A DNA stretch of 64,000 bases, taken from positions 186,001 to 250,000 of the forward strand of contig NZ_MVBC01000003.1 of NCBI RefSeq assembly GCF_002007105.1, written 5' to 3'. The notes under the pieces are model-generated. The model made no database searches, was not told the origin of the DNA, and saw only the letters and a list, made by a program, of their open reading frames with translations. The translations under genes were made by a program, and so were the position numbers. Each line of letters begins with the position of its first letter. The first letter of the stretch is position 1. This DNA comes from Hymenobacter sp. CRA2 (GTDB lineage: Bacteria; Bacteroidota; Bacteroidia; Cytophagales; Hymenobacteraceae). Shown here one piece after another: positions 14,729-19,954 of this stretch.

Positions 14729-15895
14729 CTAACCAGCCGTAATGAGGTTTTCCTGCTCGATGAGCACGTGCAAATCCTGATCTACTACCTCTTTTTTGTG
14801 GTCGGCCAGGGTCAGGAAGGAGGCGTAGGCCTTGTTGAGGGCAGTACGCTCCAGGTCGTAGCCGAGCTTTTGGAGTCGGTAAGCCAGGGCAGCGCGGCCG
14901 GAGCGGGCCGTCAGCACGATGGAGGAGTCGGCCACACCTACTTCGTGCGGGTCGATGATTTCGTAGGTTTCGCGGTGCTTGATGACGCCGTCCTGGTGAA
15001 TGCCGCTGGAGTGCGAAAAGGCGTTGGCACCCACGATGGCCTTGTTGGGCTGCACGGGCATGCTCATCAGGTGCGAGACCATGGCCGAAGTCTCAGCCAG
15101 CAGGCGTGTGTTGACGTTGGTGTGCAGATTCAGGTAAGGATGCTGGCGCATGACCATCACTACTTCCTCCAGGGCCGTGTTGCCGGCCCGCTCCCCTACC
15201 CCGTTGATGGTACACTCGATTTGGCGGGCCCCGTGGAGCACGCCCGAAATGGAGTTGGCGGTGGCCATGCCCAGGTCGTTGTGGCAGTGCGTGGATAGCG
15301 TCACGCCCTCGATGCCGCGCACGTTTTCGCGCAGGTACTTGATTTTGGCGCCGTACTCCCCGGGCAGGCAGTAGCCGGTAGTGTCGGGAATGTTGAGCAC
15401 GGTGGCACCGGCGCGAATGGCGGCTTCGCACACGCGGGCCAGAAACTCGTTGTCGGTGCGGCCGGCGTCTTCGGCGTAGAACTCCACGTCCTCCACGAAG
15501 CTCTTGGCCAGCTTCACGGCCGCCACGGCGCGCTGCAGCACATCCTCGCGGGTGGTTTGTAGCTTGAAGCGCACGTGCGAATCGGAAGTACCGATGCCGG
15601 TGTGAATGCGCGGCCGGCGGGCGCCGCGCAGCGCCTCGGCCGCCACACGGATGTCGTTTTCGACGGCGCGCGAAAGGCCGCAGACGGTAGCTTCCTTGAC
15701 CTGGGCAGCAATGGCCTGCACGGCCGCGAAGTCGCCGGGGCTGGAAACCGGGAAGCCCGCCTCGATGACGTCGACGCCCAGAAGCTCCAGCTGCGCGGCA
15801 ATGACCAGCTTTTCGTCCCGGTTGAGCTTGCACCCCGGCACTTGTTCGCCGTCGCGCAGGGTGGTGTCGAAGATCTGTACTTTCTGAGCTGCCAT
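14729..15895 (-). CDS. leuA: 2-isopropylmalate synthase, short form without regulatory domain
   Basis: 388 residues from the ATG at 15895 ([20 protein letters not shown]). It condenses acetyl-CoA with 2-oxoisovalerate, the committed step of leucine synthesis. Motifs of the TIM-barrel are present: [28 protein letters not shown] (metal-binding HCH) and [14 protein letters not shown]. Residues about 330-388 form only the short helical linker; the C-terminal leucine-binding LeuA dimer domain of the roughly 520-residue enzymes is missing. Short forms are usual in Bacteroidota, so feedback control must occur in another way. A 19-codon upstream ORF (15961-16020) may provide control at the RNA level. 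Confidence 0.93.
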
Positions 15896-15960
15896 GAGCG
15901 TGAGGTTCGGTTCAGCGGATTGCAGGCCGCAAGAACACCGCGTAACCCCGGCGCCAAAAA

Positions 15961-16020
15961 CTATTTTTTCACAGGGCTACTATTTCTAAAAGCCAAATCC
16001 ATATCTACATAGGTCTGCAT
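15961..16020 (-). CDS. Candidate leader peptide of leuA (19 codons)
   Basis: ATG at 16020 to TAG at 15961 encodes [19 protein letters not shown]; it ends 65 bases before leuA. The part FRNS (codons TTT AGA AAT AGT) lies within a 14-base block that is identical, and in the same reading phase, to a block upstream of ilvE (18342-18353). The phase-matched similarity continues past the stop codon (TTTTTG, then V-L-A) to 15928. The low-GC codons, including AGA, stand out in this genome. That it is translated and regulates leuA is inference. Confidence 0.45.
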
Positions 16021-16144
16021 ATCAAGTATTTATAAAACATCGAAATACAACGGCTAACGCGCTGCTGACGTCTGCCGCACACAGTGGAAAGGCAGATTAC
16101 TTGGATTAACGGGCTTCTGAAAAGACGTTAATGCCTCCCCGAAC

Positions 16145-16188
16145 ATCATGCTCCATATGGCGTCTGCTTACCGAAGCATAACCGTGCC
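16145..16188 (+). repeat. Diverged copy of the GTCATGCT...CGAAGCAT repeat
   Basis: ATCATGCTCCATATGGCG followed by TCTGCTTACCGAAGCATAACC aligns with the copy at 5807-5847 and has the same central insert. It lies between gpmA and leuA. Apart from this and the leuA leader, I see nothing else in the 341-base gap. Confidence 0.45.
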
Positions 16189-16236
16189 AGAGCTTTAAGC
16201 CCCCGGCTGGACAGGCGCCACGGGCAGCCCGCACGC

Positions 16237-16941
16237 CTACGCCCCATTTTGGCTTTCTAGGTAATAGTGCCGGATGCGGTTGAACTGCTCGTCCAGTTCA
16301 AACACCAGCGGCACCCCGGTGGGAATGTCCAGTTGCGCAACTTCCGCGTCGGAGAGGTGGTCGATGTACTGCACCACCGCGCGCAGGCTGTTGCCGTGGG
16401 CGCACACGATGACGTTGCGTCCCTGGTGCACGGCCTTCATGATGTGCTCCGTCCAGAAGGGTAATACCCGCGTCATGGTTTCGCTCAGGTTCTCCGTCAG
16501 CGGCAGCTCCCGGTGCGTGAGGGTGTGGTAGCGCGGGTCGTGGCCGGGAAAGCGCGGGTCGTCGGGGGTGAGAGCGGGCGGGTGCTCCTGCGGGTCGCGG
16601 CGCCAGCGTTGCACCTGCGCCTCGCCGTACTGGGCGGTGATTTCAGCTTTATTGAGCCCCTGCAAGCTGCCGTAAAACCGCTCGTTGAGGCGCCAGGACT
16701 TTTCCACCGGAATCCAGAGCAAGTTCATGGCTTCCAAGGCCAGGTGCAGGGTTTTGATGCTGCGCTTCAGGTAAGACGTGAAGCCCACGTCGAAGCTGTA
16801 GCCGTGTTGGCGCAGCGTTTCGCCGGCGCGCACGGCCTGCGCGGCGCCCGCGGCGGAAAGGTCGACGTCGGTCCAGCCGGTAAAGCGGTTTTCCAGGTTC
16901 CACACGCTCTCGCCATGGCGGAGCAGTACCAGTTTCTTCAT
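16237..16941 (-). CDS. gpmA: 2,3-bisphosphoglycerate-dependent phosphoglycerate mutase
   Basis: 234 residues from the ATG at 16941 (MKKLVLLRHGESVWNLENRF). It interconverts 3- and 2-phosphoglycerate in glycolysis. The phosphohistidine motif LLRHGESVWN has the catalytic His at residue 9; other motifs are FTGWTDVDLSAAG, TSYLKRSIKTL, NERFYGSLQGLNKAE and VCAHGNSLRAVVQY with the second His. Length is somewhat below the 245-250 of classical enzymes. It lies 138 bases downstream of ilvE on the same strand. A longer reading to 17013 adds a segment without family similarity. Confidence 0.93.
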   Translation of the reverse strand: MKKLVLLRHGESVWNLENRFTGWTDVDLSAAGAAQAVRAGETLRQHGYSFDVGFTSYLKRSIKTLHLALEAMNLLWIPVEKSWRLNERFYGSLQGLNKAEITAQYGEAQVQRWRRDPQEHPPALTPDDPRFPGHDPRYHTLTHRELPLTENLSETMTRVLPFWTEHIMKAVHQGRNVIVCAHGNSLRAVVQYIDHLSDAEVAQLDIPTGVPLVFELDEQFNRIRHYYLESQNGA

Positions 16942-17079
16942 GCCGGAAAATAAGCCCGGCGCGCATGAGGTAACGATTAGCAAGCACGGGTAGCCGGCAT
17001 CCGCCGCACGCAAGGCCTGCCTGGCAGCGCGGCCCTTCGGCCTTTAAGCCTGCTCGGAATGACCTGATTTGCGGTCATT

Positions 17080-17979
17080 TTACTCCCGCGCCTCCACTAT
17101 AGCCTCCACCGCCTGGCCCGTCACGAGAGCGGTGTAGCGGCGGGCCAGCTCGGCACCGAGAGTTTCAGCGAAGGGCTTCCCGAACACGATGTCGTCCACC
17201 GAAGCCACGCCAACGACTTCGGCGGCGGTGCCGGTCATGAAGGCGCCGGTGGCGCCGCGCAGCTCCTCGGGGCGGAAAAACGTTTCGGTGACCCGGATGC
17301 CGGCTTCGCGGGCCAGATCGATGATGGTGTTGCGGGTGATGCCACGCAGAATGCTACCCGCCGACGGCGTAAACAGCTCCCCGTCGCGTTCGAAGAAGAA
17401 GTTGGCGCCCGGGCCCTCGGCTACGTAGCCGTGCATATCGAGCAGCAGGGCCTCGTCGTAGCCGCGGTTTTTGGCCTCGGTACTGGCAATGATAGAGTTG
17501 GCATAGTGCCCTGATACCTTGGCCTCGATGGGCACGGCCCTGGGATTGGGCCGCTCGTAGGGCGAAATGGTCAGACGCAGGGACTGGTCGCCGAGGTACC
17601 TACCCCAGTCCCACACGGCCATGAGCAGGTTGCCGGCCGGCGGACACTTCAGGCTCATGTTGGGCGCGGCAGCGTAGGCCAGCGGGCGGATGTAGGCGTC
17701 GCTCAGCCCGTTTTTCGCCAATAGCTGGTAGCTGATTTCGGTCAGCTCCGCCACCGAATAGCTCAGCGGCAAGCCGATGGCCTGACAGGAGTAATGGAAC
17801 CGCTCGAAGTGCTCCTTGGGCTTGAAAATCCGGGTGCCGCTGGGCGTGTTATAGGCCCGAATGCCCTCAAATACGGCGTAGCCGTAGTGCAGCGACTGGG
17901 CATACATTCCGCAGGTGGCCTGCTCGGCCGAAACAAACTCGCCGTCCAGAAACGCGACGGTATTGCTGGTGAAGTACAT
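17080..17979 (-). CDS. ilvE: Branched-chain amino acid aminotransferase
   Basis: 299 residues from the ATG at 17979 (MYFTSNTVAFLDGEFVSAEQ). A fold type IV PLP enzyme that transaminates 2-oxoisocaproate, 2-oxoisovalerate and 2-oxo-3-methylvalerate to Leu, Val and Ile. Motifs are HYGYAVFEGIRAY, YIRPLAYAA, EAKVSGHYANS with the PLP lysine near residue 154, DEALLLDMHGYVAEGPGANF and ITRNTIIDLAREAG. The open frame extends upstream to 18117 but the family start is the Met at 17979. Its upstream region carries an element also found before leuA, pointing to shared control. Confidence 0.94.
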   Translation of the reverse strand: MYFTSNTVAFLDGEFVSAEQATCGMYAQSLHYGYAVFEGIRAYNTPSGTRIFKPKEHFERFHYSCQAIGLPLSYSVAELTEISYQLLAKNGLSDAYIRPLAYAAAPNMSLKCPPAGNLLMAVWDWGRYLGDQSLRLTISPYERPNPRAVPIEAKVSGHYANSIIASTEAKNRGYDEALLLDMHGYVAEGPGANFFFERDGELFTPSAGSILRGITRNTIIDLAREAGIRVTETFFRPEELRGATGAFMTGTAAEVVGVASVDDIVFGKPFAETLGAELARRYTALVTGQAVEAIVEARE

Positions 17980-18412
17980 CGGTACGGGCAGTAGTAACGC
18001 AGCAGGTAAGAAGTAAATGCTTTCGGCACGCGCCCTAAACGACGACCGGGCAGCTCCGGCCATACATTTCAGTAACGGCGGGCAGGCGTGCGGAACCGTG
18101 AGCGAAACGCTCTGCACGGGGGTGAAATAGAGGGTGGCGGAGGAGTATTTTCGAGCCTTGGGGAGCCGTGCAGGCCGGTTTGTTCTTTAGCTTGCGCCTT
18201 CCGGGTGGCCAGTTGCCATCGGATGCAGCGGCGTGAGCGTGAAGCACTTGGTGGACCGGCACTACACAACGCAGCCGTCCCTTGGTGGCCTGCAAGTACA
18301 AGCCGCGTACGCCGCAGCAAAAACCGGTTTTGGGAGTAGTTACTATTTCTAAAATCTAGCGCCCGCCAACCAACCAACTCATTATCACAACCTTGCAATA
18401 AGCCCCGCTACA
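17980..18412. other. Long intergenic region before ilvE
   Basis: 433 bases between the divergent ilvE and the 18413 gene. No convincing protein gene is seen. A minus-strand frame stays open for 109 codons (18398 to 18069) and contains the leader-like segment described at 18291-18362, but its later part is not protein-like. The region is long enough for a regulated ilvE leader. Confidence 0.5.
18291..18362 (-). promoter_or_regulatory. Leader-like element of ilvE, homologous to the leuA leader
   Basis: On the minus strand this reads ALDFRNSNYSQNRFLLRR followed by TRLVLA. Aligned without gaps to the leuA leader (15928-15999) it keeps F-R-N-S, then F-L, then R-x-V-L-A at identical spacing, with silent differences in the VLA codons. 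The stretch is rich in Leu, Val and Arg, as expected for an attenuator peptide of branched-chain amino acid genes. No Met is in frame; a TTG start is possible. No stop codon follows for about 75 codons, which argues against a classical short leader peptide. Confidence 0.45.
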
Positions 18413-19954
18413 ATGCCAAACGGCAGTATCGACCCCGTATTTCAGCTTGTTAAGTCGCTGACTCGCTCCGAGAAGCGGCACTTTCGGCTGTTTTCGGGCC
18501 GCTCGGGGTCGGCGGAGGACCTGAAGTTCATGCAGCTTTTCGATGCGCTGGATGCACTGGGCCAGTACGACGAGGAGCGCATCTTGGCGCAGGTACCGGC
18601 CATCCGGAAGGTGCAGCTGGCCAACCTCAAGGCCAACCTCTACCGGCAGCTGCTGAGCAGCCTGCGCCAATACCACGCCGGCCAGAACATCGACATTCAG
18701 CTCCACGAGCAGCTCGACTACGCCCGCGTGCTCTACAACAAGGGTTTCTACCAGCAGGCGCTCCGGATGCTGGAGCGCACCAAGCAGCAGGCCCAGCAGG
18801 CACGGCTGCCGCACGTGGCCCTTCTCGCCCTGGACTTCGAGAAGCTCATCGAGTCGCAGTACATCACGCGCAGCCTGCGCGGCCGGGCCGAAGATCTGTC
18901 GGCCGAATCCCTGGACACGGTGCAGCACGTCACGCAGTTGCACCGGCTCAGCAACGTAGCACTGCGCATGTACGGCCTGTATTTGCGCGTAGGCCATGCC
19001 CGCAGCCAGCGGGATGCCGAGCAGATAACCGACCGTTTTCGGGCGGCGCTAGCCGGGATTGACGTCAGCCAGGGCGGTTTCTACGAGTGCCTGTACTACT
19101 ACCAGGCACAGGTGTGGTACTACACCATCATCCAGGATTTCCGGGCCTGCTACCGCTACGCGCAGAAGTGGGTGGACCTGTTTGAGCAGGCGCCCGACAT
19201 GATGGAGCAGCAGCCCATGCTCTATATCAAAGGCCTGCACAACTTGCTGGCCTCGCTCTACAACCTACTCTACTACAGCAAATTCACGGCGGTACTGGCC
19301 AAGCTGGAAAGCTTCGCCGCCTCGCTCACGCGCCCCACGCCGAATACCGACGTGCTGCTCTTTCAATACATCTACACGCACAAAATCAACGCCGCTTTCC
19401 TGGAAGGCCGCTTCGCCGACAGCCTGCAGCTCATGCCCGACCTACTGGAAAAGCTGGTGCTGTTTCAGCCGCAGCTCGACCTGCACCGCCGGCTGATTTT
19501 CTACTACAAGATTGCCAGCCTGTACTTCGGCAGCGGCAACTACCGCAAGGCCATAGAGTACCTGAACAAAATCATTCAGTACAAAGACGTCACCCTGCGC
19601 GAGGACATTCAGTGCTTTGCGCGCATCCTGAACCTGATAGCCCACTACGAGGCGGGCCACGACGAAATGCTGGAGTACCAGATCAAATCGGTGTACCGCT
19701 TCCTGGGCAAGATGAACGAGCAGCAGCAGATGCAGGTGGAGATATTCCGCTTCCTGCGCGGCGTGGGTCATCTGGCTCCGCACCAGCTCAAGGATGCGTT
19801 CAGTGCTCTGAAAGACCGGCTGCTGGAAATATCAGAAAACCCGTACGAGCGGCGCCCCTTCCTCTACCTGGACCTCATTTCCTGGCTGGAAAGCAAGATT
19901 GAAGACGTGCCGGTAGAAGAAATCATGCGGCGCAAATTCGCCCGGATGAAGTAG
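18413..19954 (+). CDS. Large helical TPR-like protein, unknown
   Basis: 513 residues from the ATG at 18413 (MPNGSIDPVFQLVKSLTRSE). The whole protein is alpha-helical, with repeated tyrosine- and leucine-rich helix pairs resembling TPR or related solenoids (YARVLYNKGFYQQALRML, YYQAQVWYYTIIQDFRACY, YKIASLYFGSGNYRKAIEYL). It has no signal peptide or membrane segment, so it is cytoplasmic. I know it only as a conserved unknown of Bacteroidota. The opening VKSLTRSEKRHFRLFS may be a nucleic-acid or ribosome-contact segment; that is speculative. Monocistronic; a palindrome follows. Confidence 0.75.
   Translation: MPNGSIDPVFQLVKSLTRSEKRHFRLFSGRSGSAEDLKFMQLFDALDALGQYDEERILAQVPAIRKVQLANLKANLYRQLLSSLRQYHAGQNIDIQLHEQLDYARVLYNKGFYQQALRMLERTKQQAQQARLPHVALLALDFEKLIESQYITRSLRGRAEDLSAESLDTVQHVTQLHRLSNVALRMYGLYLRVGHARSQRDAEQITDRFRAALAGIDVSQGGFYECLYYYQAQVWYYTIIQDFRACYRYAQKWVDLFEQAPDMMEQQPMLYIKGLHNLLASLYNLLYYSKFTAVLAKLESFAASLTRPTPNTDVLLFQYIYTHKINAAFLEGRFADSLQLMPDLLEKLVLFQPQLDLHRRLIFYYKIASLYFGSGNYRKAIEYLNKIIQYKDVTLREDIQCFARILNLIAHYEAGHDEMLEYQIKSVYRFLGKMNEQQQMQVEIFRFLRGVGHLAPHQLKDAFSALKDRLLEISENPYERRPFLYLDLISWLESKIEDVPVEEIMRRKFARMK

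What the first reader, a model, noticed from the sequence alone, without database searches (positions are those of the whole stretch)
15928..18362. Shared leader element upstream of leuA and ilvE
Seen: on the minus strand, before both leuA (15928-15999) and ilvE (18291-18362), the 14-base block TTTTAGAAATAGTA is identical and reads F-R-N-S in the same phase. Without gaps the two then align as FRNS, six codons, F-L, four codons, R-x-V-L-A; V and A use different synonymous codons. Roughly 59 percent of bases match over 26 codons by my count. In leuA the block lies in a 19-codon ORF (15961-16020). Inference: a common leader (peptide or RNA) that links expression of two separate branched-chain amino acid units. 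LeuA lacks its leucine-binding domain, so RNA-level control would make sense. Weak point: the ilvE frame has no nearby stop and no Met.
Basis: partly seen in the sequence, partly recalled or inferred. Interest (0 to 1): 0.75.

Follow-up and report, generated by a model that had tools for sequence, protein, structure and literature searches.

The report
Shared control switch for leucine genes
The repeated DNA block in front of leuA and ilvE is probably not part of a messenger leader but half of a two-part docking site in front of their promoters, and the protein that may dock there is made by the neighbouring gene, which suggests a so far undescribed control of leucine, isoleucine and valine synthesis in these bacteria.

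Summary
The repeat is real: TTTTAGAAATAGTA occurs exactly twice in the 5.9-Mb genome, before leuA and ilvE. The leader interpretation fails: the block ends 16 nt before a rigidly spaced GTTTTTG-N19-T[AT]CTTGC that resembles a Bacteroidetes promoter, RNA pairs are not predicted, and its reading frame is not conserved. It is an upstream DNA operator, O1 (TTRGAAATAGTA). A similar second operator, O2 (TTNGNCNTYGTA), lies 68 bp further upstream. Both occur, 67-68 bp apart, in 93 of 94 leuA upstreams examined and before ilvE, ilvD and gltB-like genes in relatives. At ilvE, O2 overlaps the start codon of the divergent gene 18413-19954, a TPR protein (P3) related to the Bacteroides BT2802 family (BT2802 = RusR is recalled). 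Model hits at E<=5e-4 (cut chosen afterwards) occur in 93 of 95 P3-positive and 0 of 55 P3-negative Hymenobacteraceae genomes. The eight best-scoring P3 relatives outside the family are all divergent to leuA. Best explanation: P3 is a self-regulated transcriptional regulator of branched-chain amino acid synthesis acting at paired, helically phased operators. DNA binding, effector and sign of control are inferred, not shown.

The parts
15978..15989 (-).
16046..16057 (-). Operator O2 of leuA, TTAGCCGTTGTA, 68 bp upstream of O1
15955..15961 (-). -33-like box GTTTTTG of the predicted leuA promoter
   Evidence: consensus TTTG read in passages of PMC7366714
15929..15935 (-). -7-like box TTCTTGC of the predicted leuA promoter, 19 nt from the -33-like box
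14729..15895 (-). leuA, 388 aa, HMGL-like plus HCS_D2
18341..18352 (-). Operator O1 of ilvE, TTAGAAATAGTA
18409..18420 (-). Operator O2 of ilvE, TTTGGCATTGTA, 68 bp upstream of O1; on the + strand it contains the start codon of the P3 gene
18318..18324 (-). -33-like box GTTTTTG of the predicted ilvE promoter
18292..18298 (-). -7-like box TACTTGC of the predicted ilvE promoter
17080..17979 (-). ilvE, class IV aminotransferase (start ATG at 17979 read from the sequence)
18413..19954 (+). P3 gene: 513-aa TPR-type protein, relative of the BT2802 family; proposed regulator, divergent to ilvE

Best explanation
Each block is the promoter-proximal operator (O1, TTRGAAATAGTA) of a bipartite DNA control region. 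A second, related operator (O2, TTNGNCNTYGTA) lies 68 bp further upstream, and a Bacteroidetes-type promoter begins 16 nt after O1. The neighbouring P3 protein, a TPR-type relative of BT2802/RusR, binds O1 and O2 together on one face of the helix and so co-regulates leuA(CDB), ilvE and, in relatives, ilvD and gltB. At its own gene O2 covers the start codon, so P3 also controls itself. Shown: the sequence anatomy, its fixed spacing and conservation, the co-occurrence and the gene neighbourhood. Inferred: that P3 binds these sites; that it activates at leuA/ilvE (O1 centred near -58 by estimate) and dampens itself; that it senses a branched-chain amino acid or pathway intermediate through its TPR part.
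For: (1) Of 94 leuA upstreams (90 of the 98 LeuA rows plus 4 named records, at least two of which repeat the same genomes), 93 carry O1 (<=2 mismatches) and O2 (<=1) at 67-68 bp; the exception, L203, is a divergent leuA in a genome without P3. Best O2 at 68 bp with <=1 mismatch: 0 of 1,880 shuffles. (2) In the window's genome the two-part pattern with up to 3 mismatches hits leuA and ilvE only, both with 0 mismatches; the reversed control hits once. (3) Outer families keep O1/O2 at 66-67 bp (L281-L283) or 76-79 bp (L284, L286-L288), about one helical turn more. (4) P3 orthologs in 95 of 150 genomes; model hits at E<=5e-4 in 93 of 95 with P3 and 0 of 55 without; 90 of 90 genomes with the close leuA have P3. 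Four of the five genomes with P3 but without that leuA (G011, G051, G060, G063) still have a hit at E<=1e-3; none of them gave a sequence to the model. (5) P3 is divergent to ilvE (11) or leuA (24) in the 35 loci kept (best-scoring matches), including the 8 best-scoring relatives outside the family (36-53% identity). (6) P3 matches NF058569 BT_2802_fam over residues 7-505, E 3.6e-53; RusR is described as regulating ribose scavenging in PMC12596196 (passages); a nearer BT2802 relative (L313, 413 bits) stands divergent to a pfkB-family kinase gene. (7) In G113 and G091 a site with 0 mismatches to the two-part pattern lies before an ilvE-ilvD locus about 83 kb from P3 (G113) or on another contig (G091), so the site is not only a relic of the P3 start.
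Against: No DNA-binding domain was recognised in P3: Pfam up to E 1 lists mostly weak TPR models and no HTH, and Foldseek on the N-terminal 120 residues gives nothing better than E 1.0. P3 scores 181 bits against the family cut-off of 550. The ilvE copy of O1 is degenerate in the two other same-genus genomes with P3 (G006, G002), though G006 leuA keeps it. The co-occurrence is partly circular, because the model was built from leuA upstreams of these same genomes; it is not corrected for phylogeny; the E cut was chosen afterwards, and at 1e-3 two of 55 P3-negative genomes (G015, G039) have partial hits. Across 150 genomes the two-part pattern with up to 3 mismatches is not specific: 122 genomes match and the reversed control also hits widely. 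Nine P3 loci (L237-L243, L248, L249) have the site but no leu or ilv gene in the stretch fetched. Among 20 further, more distant relatives only 5 stand beside leuA. The -7 box TACTTGC differs from TAnnTTTG. There are no expression or binding data.
Confidence: 0.75

Rival explanations
1. Leader peptide or leader RNA (attenuator, riboswitch, T-box) shared by leuA and ilvE.
For: The block reads F-R-N-S in both copies and lies in a 19-codon ORF at leuA. In some Hymenobacteraceae loci (L236, L250, L251) a terminator-like hairpin is visible by eye before ilvE.
Against: 0 consensus RNA pairs in 57 sequences; the only Rfam match in the window at gathering threshold is a tRNA; in-frame ATG in 7 of 70 relatives; no phase relation to leuA in 34 loci; the block is upstream of the promoter-like pair; the window's ilvE leader folds no better than shuffles (z 0.99).
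Confidence: 0.04
2. The operators belong to another DNA-binding regulator (for example Lrp/AsnC or LysR type) and P3 is only a conserved neighbour.
For: No DNA-binding fold recognised in P3. Control of ilv, leu and gltB genes together recalls the E. coli Lrp regulon (recalled, not tested).
Against: Sites follow P3 across 150 genomes, and O1 lies at one fixed distance (65 bp) from the P3 start in 22 of 27 Hymenobacteraceae loci by a strict pattern. In 9 loci the site is beside P3 with no leu or ilv gene in the stretch fetched. Co-occurrence of other regulator families was not tested.
Confidence: 0.12
3. P3 controls these promoters without touching DNA, as a TPR partner of another regulator (Rap-like) or of RNA polymerase.
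For: All-helical TPR-type model; Foldseek lists Rap proteins and MalT domain III among weak hits, none at E<=0.001.
Against: The N-terminal 90 residues are well conserved, with invariant or nearly invariant Lys, Arg and Glu, and O2 overlaps the P3 start, a usual place for a self-operator.
Confidence: 0.12

Closest known systems
BT2802 / RusR of Bacteroides thetaiotaomicron (NCBIfam NF058569; that BT2802 is RusR is recalled)
   Same: P3 aligns over residues 7-505 of 513 to the family model, E 3.6e-53; RusR is named as regulator of the ribose genes BT2803-2809 (passages of PMC12596196).
   Different: 181 bits against a cut-off of 550; 23% identity to a kinase-adjacent relative; the likely targets are branched-chain amino acid genes; here a DNA site is predicted. 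The primary RusR paper was not held.
Bacteroidetes housekeeping promoter (sigma ABfr: TTTG near -33, TAnnTTTG at -7)
   Same: GTTTTTG-N19-T[AT]CTTGC at fixed spacing; consensus read in passages of PMC7366714.
   Different: The -7 box is usually TACTTGC or TTCTTTG rather than TAnnTTTG; start sites are not mapped.
Regulators with paired, phased operators next to a self-regulating divergent gene (AraC- or LysR-type logic; recalled)
   Same: Two related sites, helical phasing, divergent candidate regulator gene, one site over its own start.
   Different: P3 shows no HTH domain in Pfam and no sign of belonging to either family.
Leader-peptide attenuation of leu/ilv operons (enterobacteria; recalled)
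   Same: Same target pathway.
   Different: No conserved ORF or RNA structure here.

Membership tests
Leader-peptide attenuator | Conserved short ORF with a start codon across relatives | tested here: not met
   In-frame ATG before the block in 7 of 70 relatives with the exact block pattern, 6 of them with a stop before leuA
Leader-peptide attenuator | Element lies inside the transcript | tested here: inconclusive
   It lies upstream of a conserved -33/-7-like pair; transcript ends are not mapped
Riboswitch / T-box / known RNA family | Rfam match or predicted consensus structure | tested here: not met
   Only a tRNA in the window at gathering threshold; 0 pairs on A1
Dispersed repeat | Copies at unrelated loci | tested here: not met
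   2 exact copies in the genome plus one place with 1 mismatch; two-part pattern at leuA and ilvE only
Transcription-factor operator | Same site before functionally related genes in relatives, at fixed promoter distance | tested here: met
   leuA, ilvE, ilvD, gltB-like and a leuD/leuB-like locus (gene names partly by eye)
Transcription-factor operator | Bound by a protein | not testable with these tools
   No binding data
BT2802 family (NF058569) | Score at or above the curated cut-off of 550 | tested here: not met
   181 bits; even the kinase-adjacent L313 protein has 413. P3 is a full-length relative, not a member by this cut-off
BT2802 family (NF058569) | Full-length homology | tested here: met
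   Residues 7-505 of P3 on profile positions 5-502
Known HTH regulator families | Recognised DNA-binding domain | tested here: not met
   Pfam up to E 1 lists TPR models plus weak Csm6_6H, ANAPC3 and SiaC, no HTH; Foldseek on the N-terminus, best E 1.0
sigma ABfr promoter | TTTG near -33 and TAnnTTTG near -7 | tested here: inconclusive
   GTTTT with <=1 mismatch in 92 of 94; -7 box GTWCTT with <=1 mismatch in 77 of 94; it departs from the exact consensus
Lrp/AsnC or LysR regulon | A regulator of that family that tracks the site across genomes | not tested
   No search for these families was made

The most novel reading that the evidence does not exclude
P3 is the branched-chain amino acid master regulator of many Cytophagales and shows that the whole BT2802/RusR group is a class of TPR transcription factors with an unrecognised DNA-binding domain. 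They bind paired, helically phased operators 66-79 bp apart, one laid over their own start codon, and paralogs serve other pathways (glutamate synthase, a second ilvB-like gene, a ribokinase-like kinase).
Probability: 0.45. Interest if true: 0.8.

Novelty: new variant of a known kind. Interest (0 to 1): 0.62.

Why it matters
How Bacteroidota outside the gut genera control amino acid synthesis seems little studied; two searches of the held library listed no regulator of these genes in Cytophagales among the rows shown. This gives a candidate regulator, its predicted binding sites and its likely target genes. It also offers a concrete DNA target for testing how BT2802-type proteins, known from sugar use in gut Bacteroides, act.

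Tried and rejected
Leader peptide and leader RNA: rejected. Dispersed repeat: rejected. A palindrome for O1: suggestive in a few copies (TTTTGGAAAT...ATTTCCGAAAA in L007, L014, L015, by eye) but not general. The third near-copy at G000:C3:165615 (L003) has another spacing to its promoter-like boxes and does not match the two-part pattern, so I leave it out. One search used a spacer one base too long; its hits were mostly noise (the reversed control hit about as often) and were not used. Exact RGAAATAGTA was not seen in the 500 bp before leuA in the 76 loci L038-L113. The R1 model found hits at E<=0.001 in only 2 Cytophagales genomes outside Hymenobacteraceae, so it misses the milder O1 read by eye in 7 of 8 outer loci. 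A fold of the 312-nt ilvE leader gave no signal. Foldseek of the full model gave TPR solenoids, none at E<=0.001. The two-part pattern at up to 3 mismatches is too loose across 150 genomes. Literature: (listings only); passages of PMC12596196 and PMC7366714.

Full report
Observation. The 14-mer is present at the stated places and nowhere else exactly in the 5.88-Mb genome; one further place has a single mismatch. Extending to 137 nt gives 71 matches, against a chance mean of 36.7 and a maximum of 62 in 19,908 random pairs.

What it is. LeuA was found in 97 of 150 Hymenobacteraceae genomes, 98 rows. I examined the upstream DNA of 90 of these rows plus 4 named records (94 in all; L036 and L037 repeat the genomes of L032 and L189). 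The first profile used 90 of the 94 (L150, L153, L165 and L203 left out because the scan had picked a wrong place or none); there the core GAAAT is invariant and is followed at fixed distances by an A-tract, GTTTTTG and, after N19, T[AT]CTTG. This resembles the Bacteroidetes promoter, TTTG near -33 and TAnnTTTG at -7 (passages of PMC7366714). RNAalifold finds no pair in 57 sequences. The distance from O1 to the leuA ATG is spread over the three phases in 34 loci, and an in-frame ATG precedes the block in 7 of 70 relatives. So the block is most simply read as DNA upstream of a promoter, not a leader; transcript starts are not mapped.

A second operator. In 23 leuA promoters that are not next to the P3 gene, TTNGCCNTTGTA-like sequence recurs 68 bp upstream of O1. 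A joint scan of all 94 finds O1 (<=2 mismatches) and O2 (<=1) at 67-68 bp in 93; L203, with a divergent leuA and no P3 ortholog in its genome, is the one without. The shuffled control gives 0 of 1,880. O1 and O2 of the window's leuA share 8 of 12 positions. The same pair stands before ilvE, ilvD, gltB-like genes and a leuD/leuB-like locus in relatives; several ilvD and gltB copies have 2-3 mismatches in O2. In the window's genome the two-part pattern, up to 3 mismatches allowed, gives leuA and ilvE only, against one hit of the reversed control. Across 150 genomes the same looseness is not specific (122 genomes match, the reversed control also hits widely), but in the part of the list shown every place with 0 or 1 mismatch is in a P3-positive genome. 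In other families of the order the spacing is 66-67 bp (L281-L283) or 76-79 bp (L284, L286-L288), one helical turn apart, which suggests proteins on the same face of the DNA; L285 is weak in both parts.

The candidate regulator. At ilvE, O2 covers the start codon of the divergent gene 18413-19954, product P3. P3 is a 513-aa protein with weak Pfam TPR matches that aligns full length to NCBIfam BT_2802_fam (E 3.6e-53, 181 bits, cut-off 550). RusR is described as regulating ribose scavenging in PMC12596196 (passages); that BT2802 and RusR are one protein is recalled. P3 orthologs occur in 95 of 150 genomes (two more have only remote relatives). Model R1 hits at E<=5e-4 occur in 93 of these 95 (missing: G002, G051) and in 0 of the other 55; all 90 genomes with the close leuA have P3; 5 genomes have P3 without that leuA. 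The cut was chosen afterwards; at 1e-3 the counts are 94 of 95 and 2 of 55 (G015, G039, partial hits). R1 was built from leuA upstreams of the same genomes, so this test is partly circular; the sites in G011, G051, G060 and G063, which have no such leuA, are not. In 241 Cytophagales genomes P3 relatives were found in 72 and R1 hits at E<=0.001 in 24, of which 22 are Hymenobacteraceae. In the 35 loci kept (the best-scoring matches) the gene divergent to P3 is ilvE (11) or leuA (24), among them the 8 best-scoring relatives outside the family. There are exceptions: in 9 other P3 loci (L237-L243, L248, L249) no leu or ilv gene lies in the stretch fetched, although the site is there. In 20 further loci of more distant relatives (22-37% identity), leuA is found in 5, an ilvB-like gene in 3, gltB in 2, and none of the tested genes in 10; a pfkB-family (ribokinase-like) gene stands beside L313 (Pfam) and, by its near-identical start, L314. 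These fit a family of regulators set beside their targets, but do not prove it.

Mechanism. Shown: two related operators at fixed, phased spacing before branched-chain genes, and their link to the P3 gene. Inferred: P3 binds them, activates leuA/ilvE from O1 and tunes itself through O2. The AlphaFold model is all helical (mean pLDDT 84). Neither the full model nor its N-terminal 120 residues has a Foldseek match at E<=0.001 in the PDB, so the DNA-binding part remains unidentified; P3 might also act through a partner.

Against. The ilvE copy of O1 is degenerate in both other same-genus genomes that have P3 (G006, G002), although G006 leuA keeps it. Only 2 of 8 genomes of the genus have leuA at E<=1e-60. 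Co-occurrence is not corrected for phylogeny. Other regulators were not tested. The primary RusR paper was not held. No wet data exist here.

Novelty. Searches of the held library listed no paper on such a regulator of branched-chain genes in Cytophagales among the rows shown; most subscription papers are outside that library. I rate it a new variant of a known kind: operator control by a relative of RusR, with a new target pathway and a predicted DNA site.

Noticed in passing
L237-L243, L248, L249 (for example L238:1548-1843): In these 9 loci (several from the group that includes a named Pontibacter) the O2-O1 promoter beside P3 faces no protein gene but a conserved noncoding stretch of about 230 nt with an invariant run GTTTTGATTAGTTTTTAATTCCAGATT and a hairpin followed by TTTT; a possible regulated small RNA. 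No pair shows changes on both sides; in the 6 of these loci searched there is no Rfam match.
   Followed up: partly
L236:5884-5944 and L250:11915-11975: Two-part sites (67 bp, 1 mismatch in O1, 1-2 in O2) directly before a glutamate-synthase-like gene next to P3, suggesting that gltB can join the regulon (gene named by eye and by similarity to L301, a GATase_2 protein).
   Followed up: partly
L299, L303, L305 (ilvB-like); L301, L309 (gltB); L313, L314 (pfkB-family kinase): More distant P3 relatives are divergent to other pathway genes: a TPP enzyme like IlvB, glutamate synthase, a ribokinase-like kinase.
   Followed up: partly
Positions -37 to -21 relative to the R of O1 in leuA upstreams; window about 16008-16024(-): A third conserved motif between O2 and O1, roughly T......TCAG....TTA, role unknown.
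   Followed up: no
L236, L250, L251, upstream of ilvE: Long ilvE leaders with a terminator-like hairpin before the gene (seen by eye); the window's own leader shows no unusual structure.
   Followed up: partly
G010, G015, G019, G023, G027, G031, G039: A second type of leuA (63-65% identity to the window's) in genomes without a P3 ortholog and, in the one examined (L203 of G031), without the operators.
   Followed up: partly
L003:1501-1514 (G000:C3:165615): Near-copy TTTTAGAAATAGTT at another place in the genome, near promoter-like boxes with other spacing and without O2; probably chance.
   Followed up: yes
L066 (CALSPC010000005.1): A metagenome contig labelled Rhodobacteraceae carries a leuA 71% identical to the window's LeuA; the label may be wrong.
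   Followed up: no
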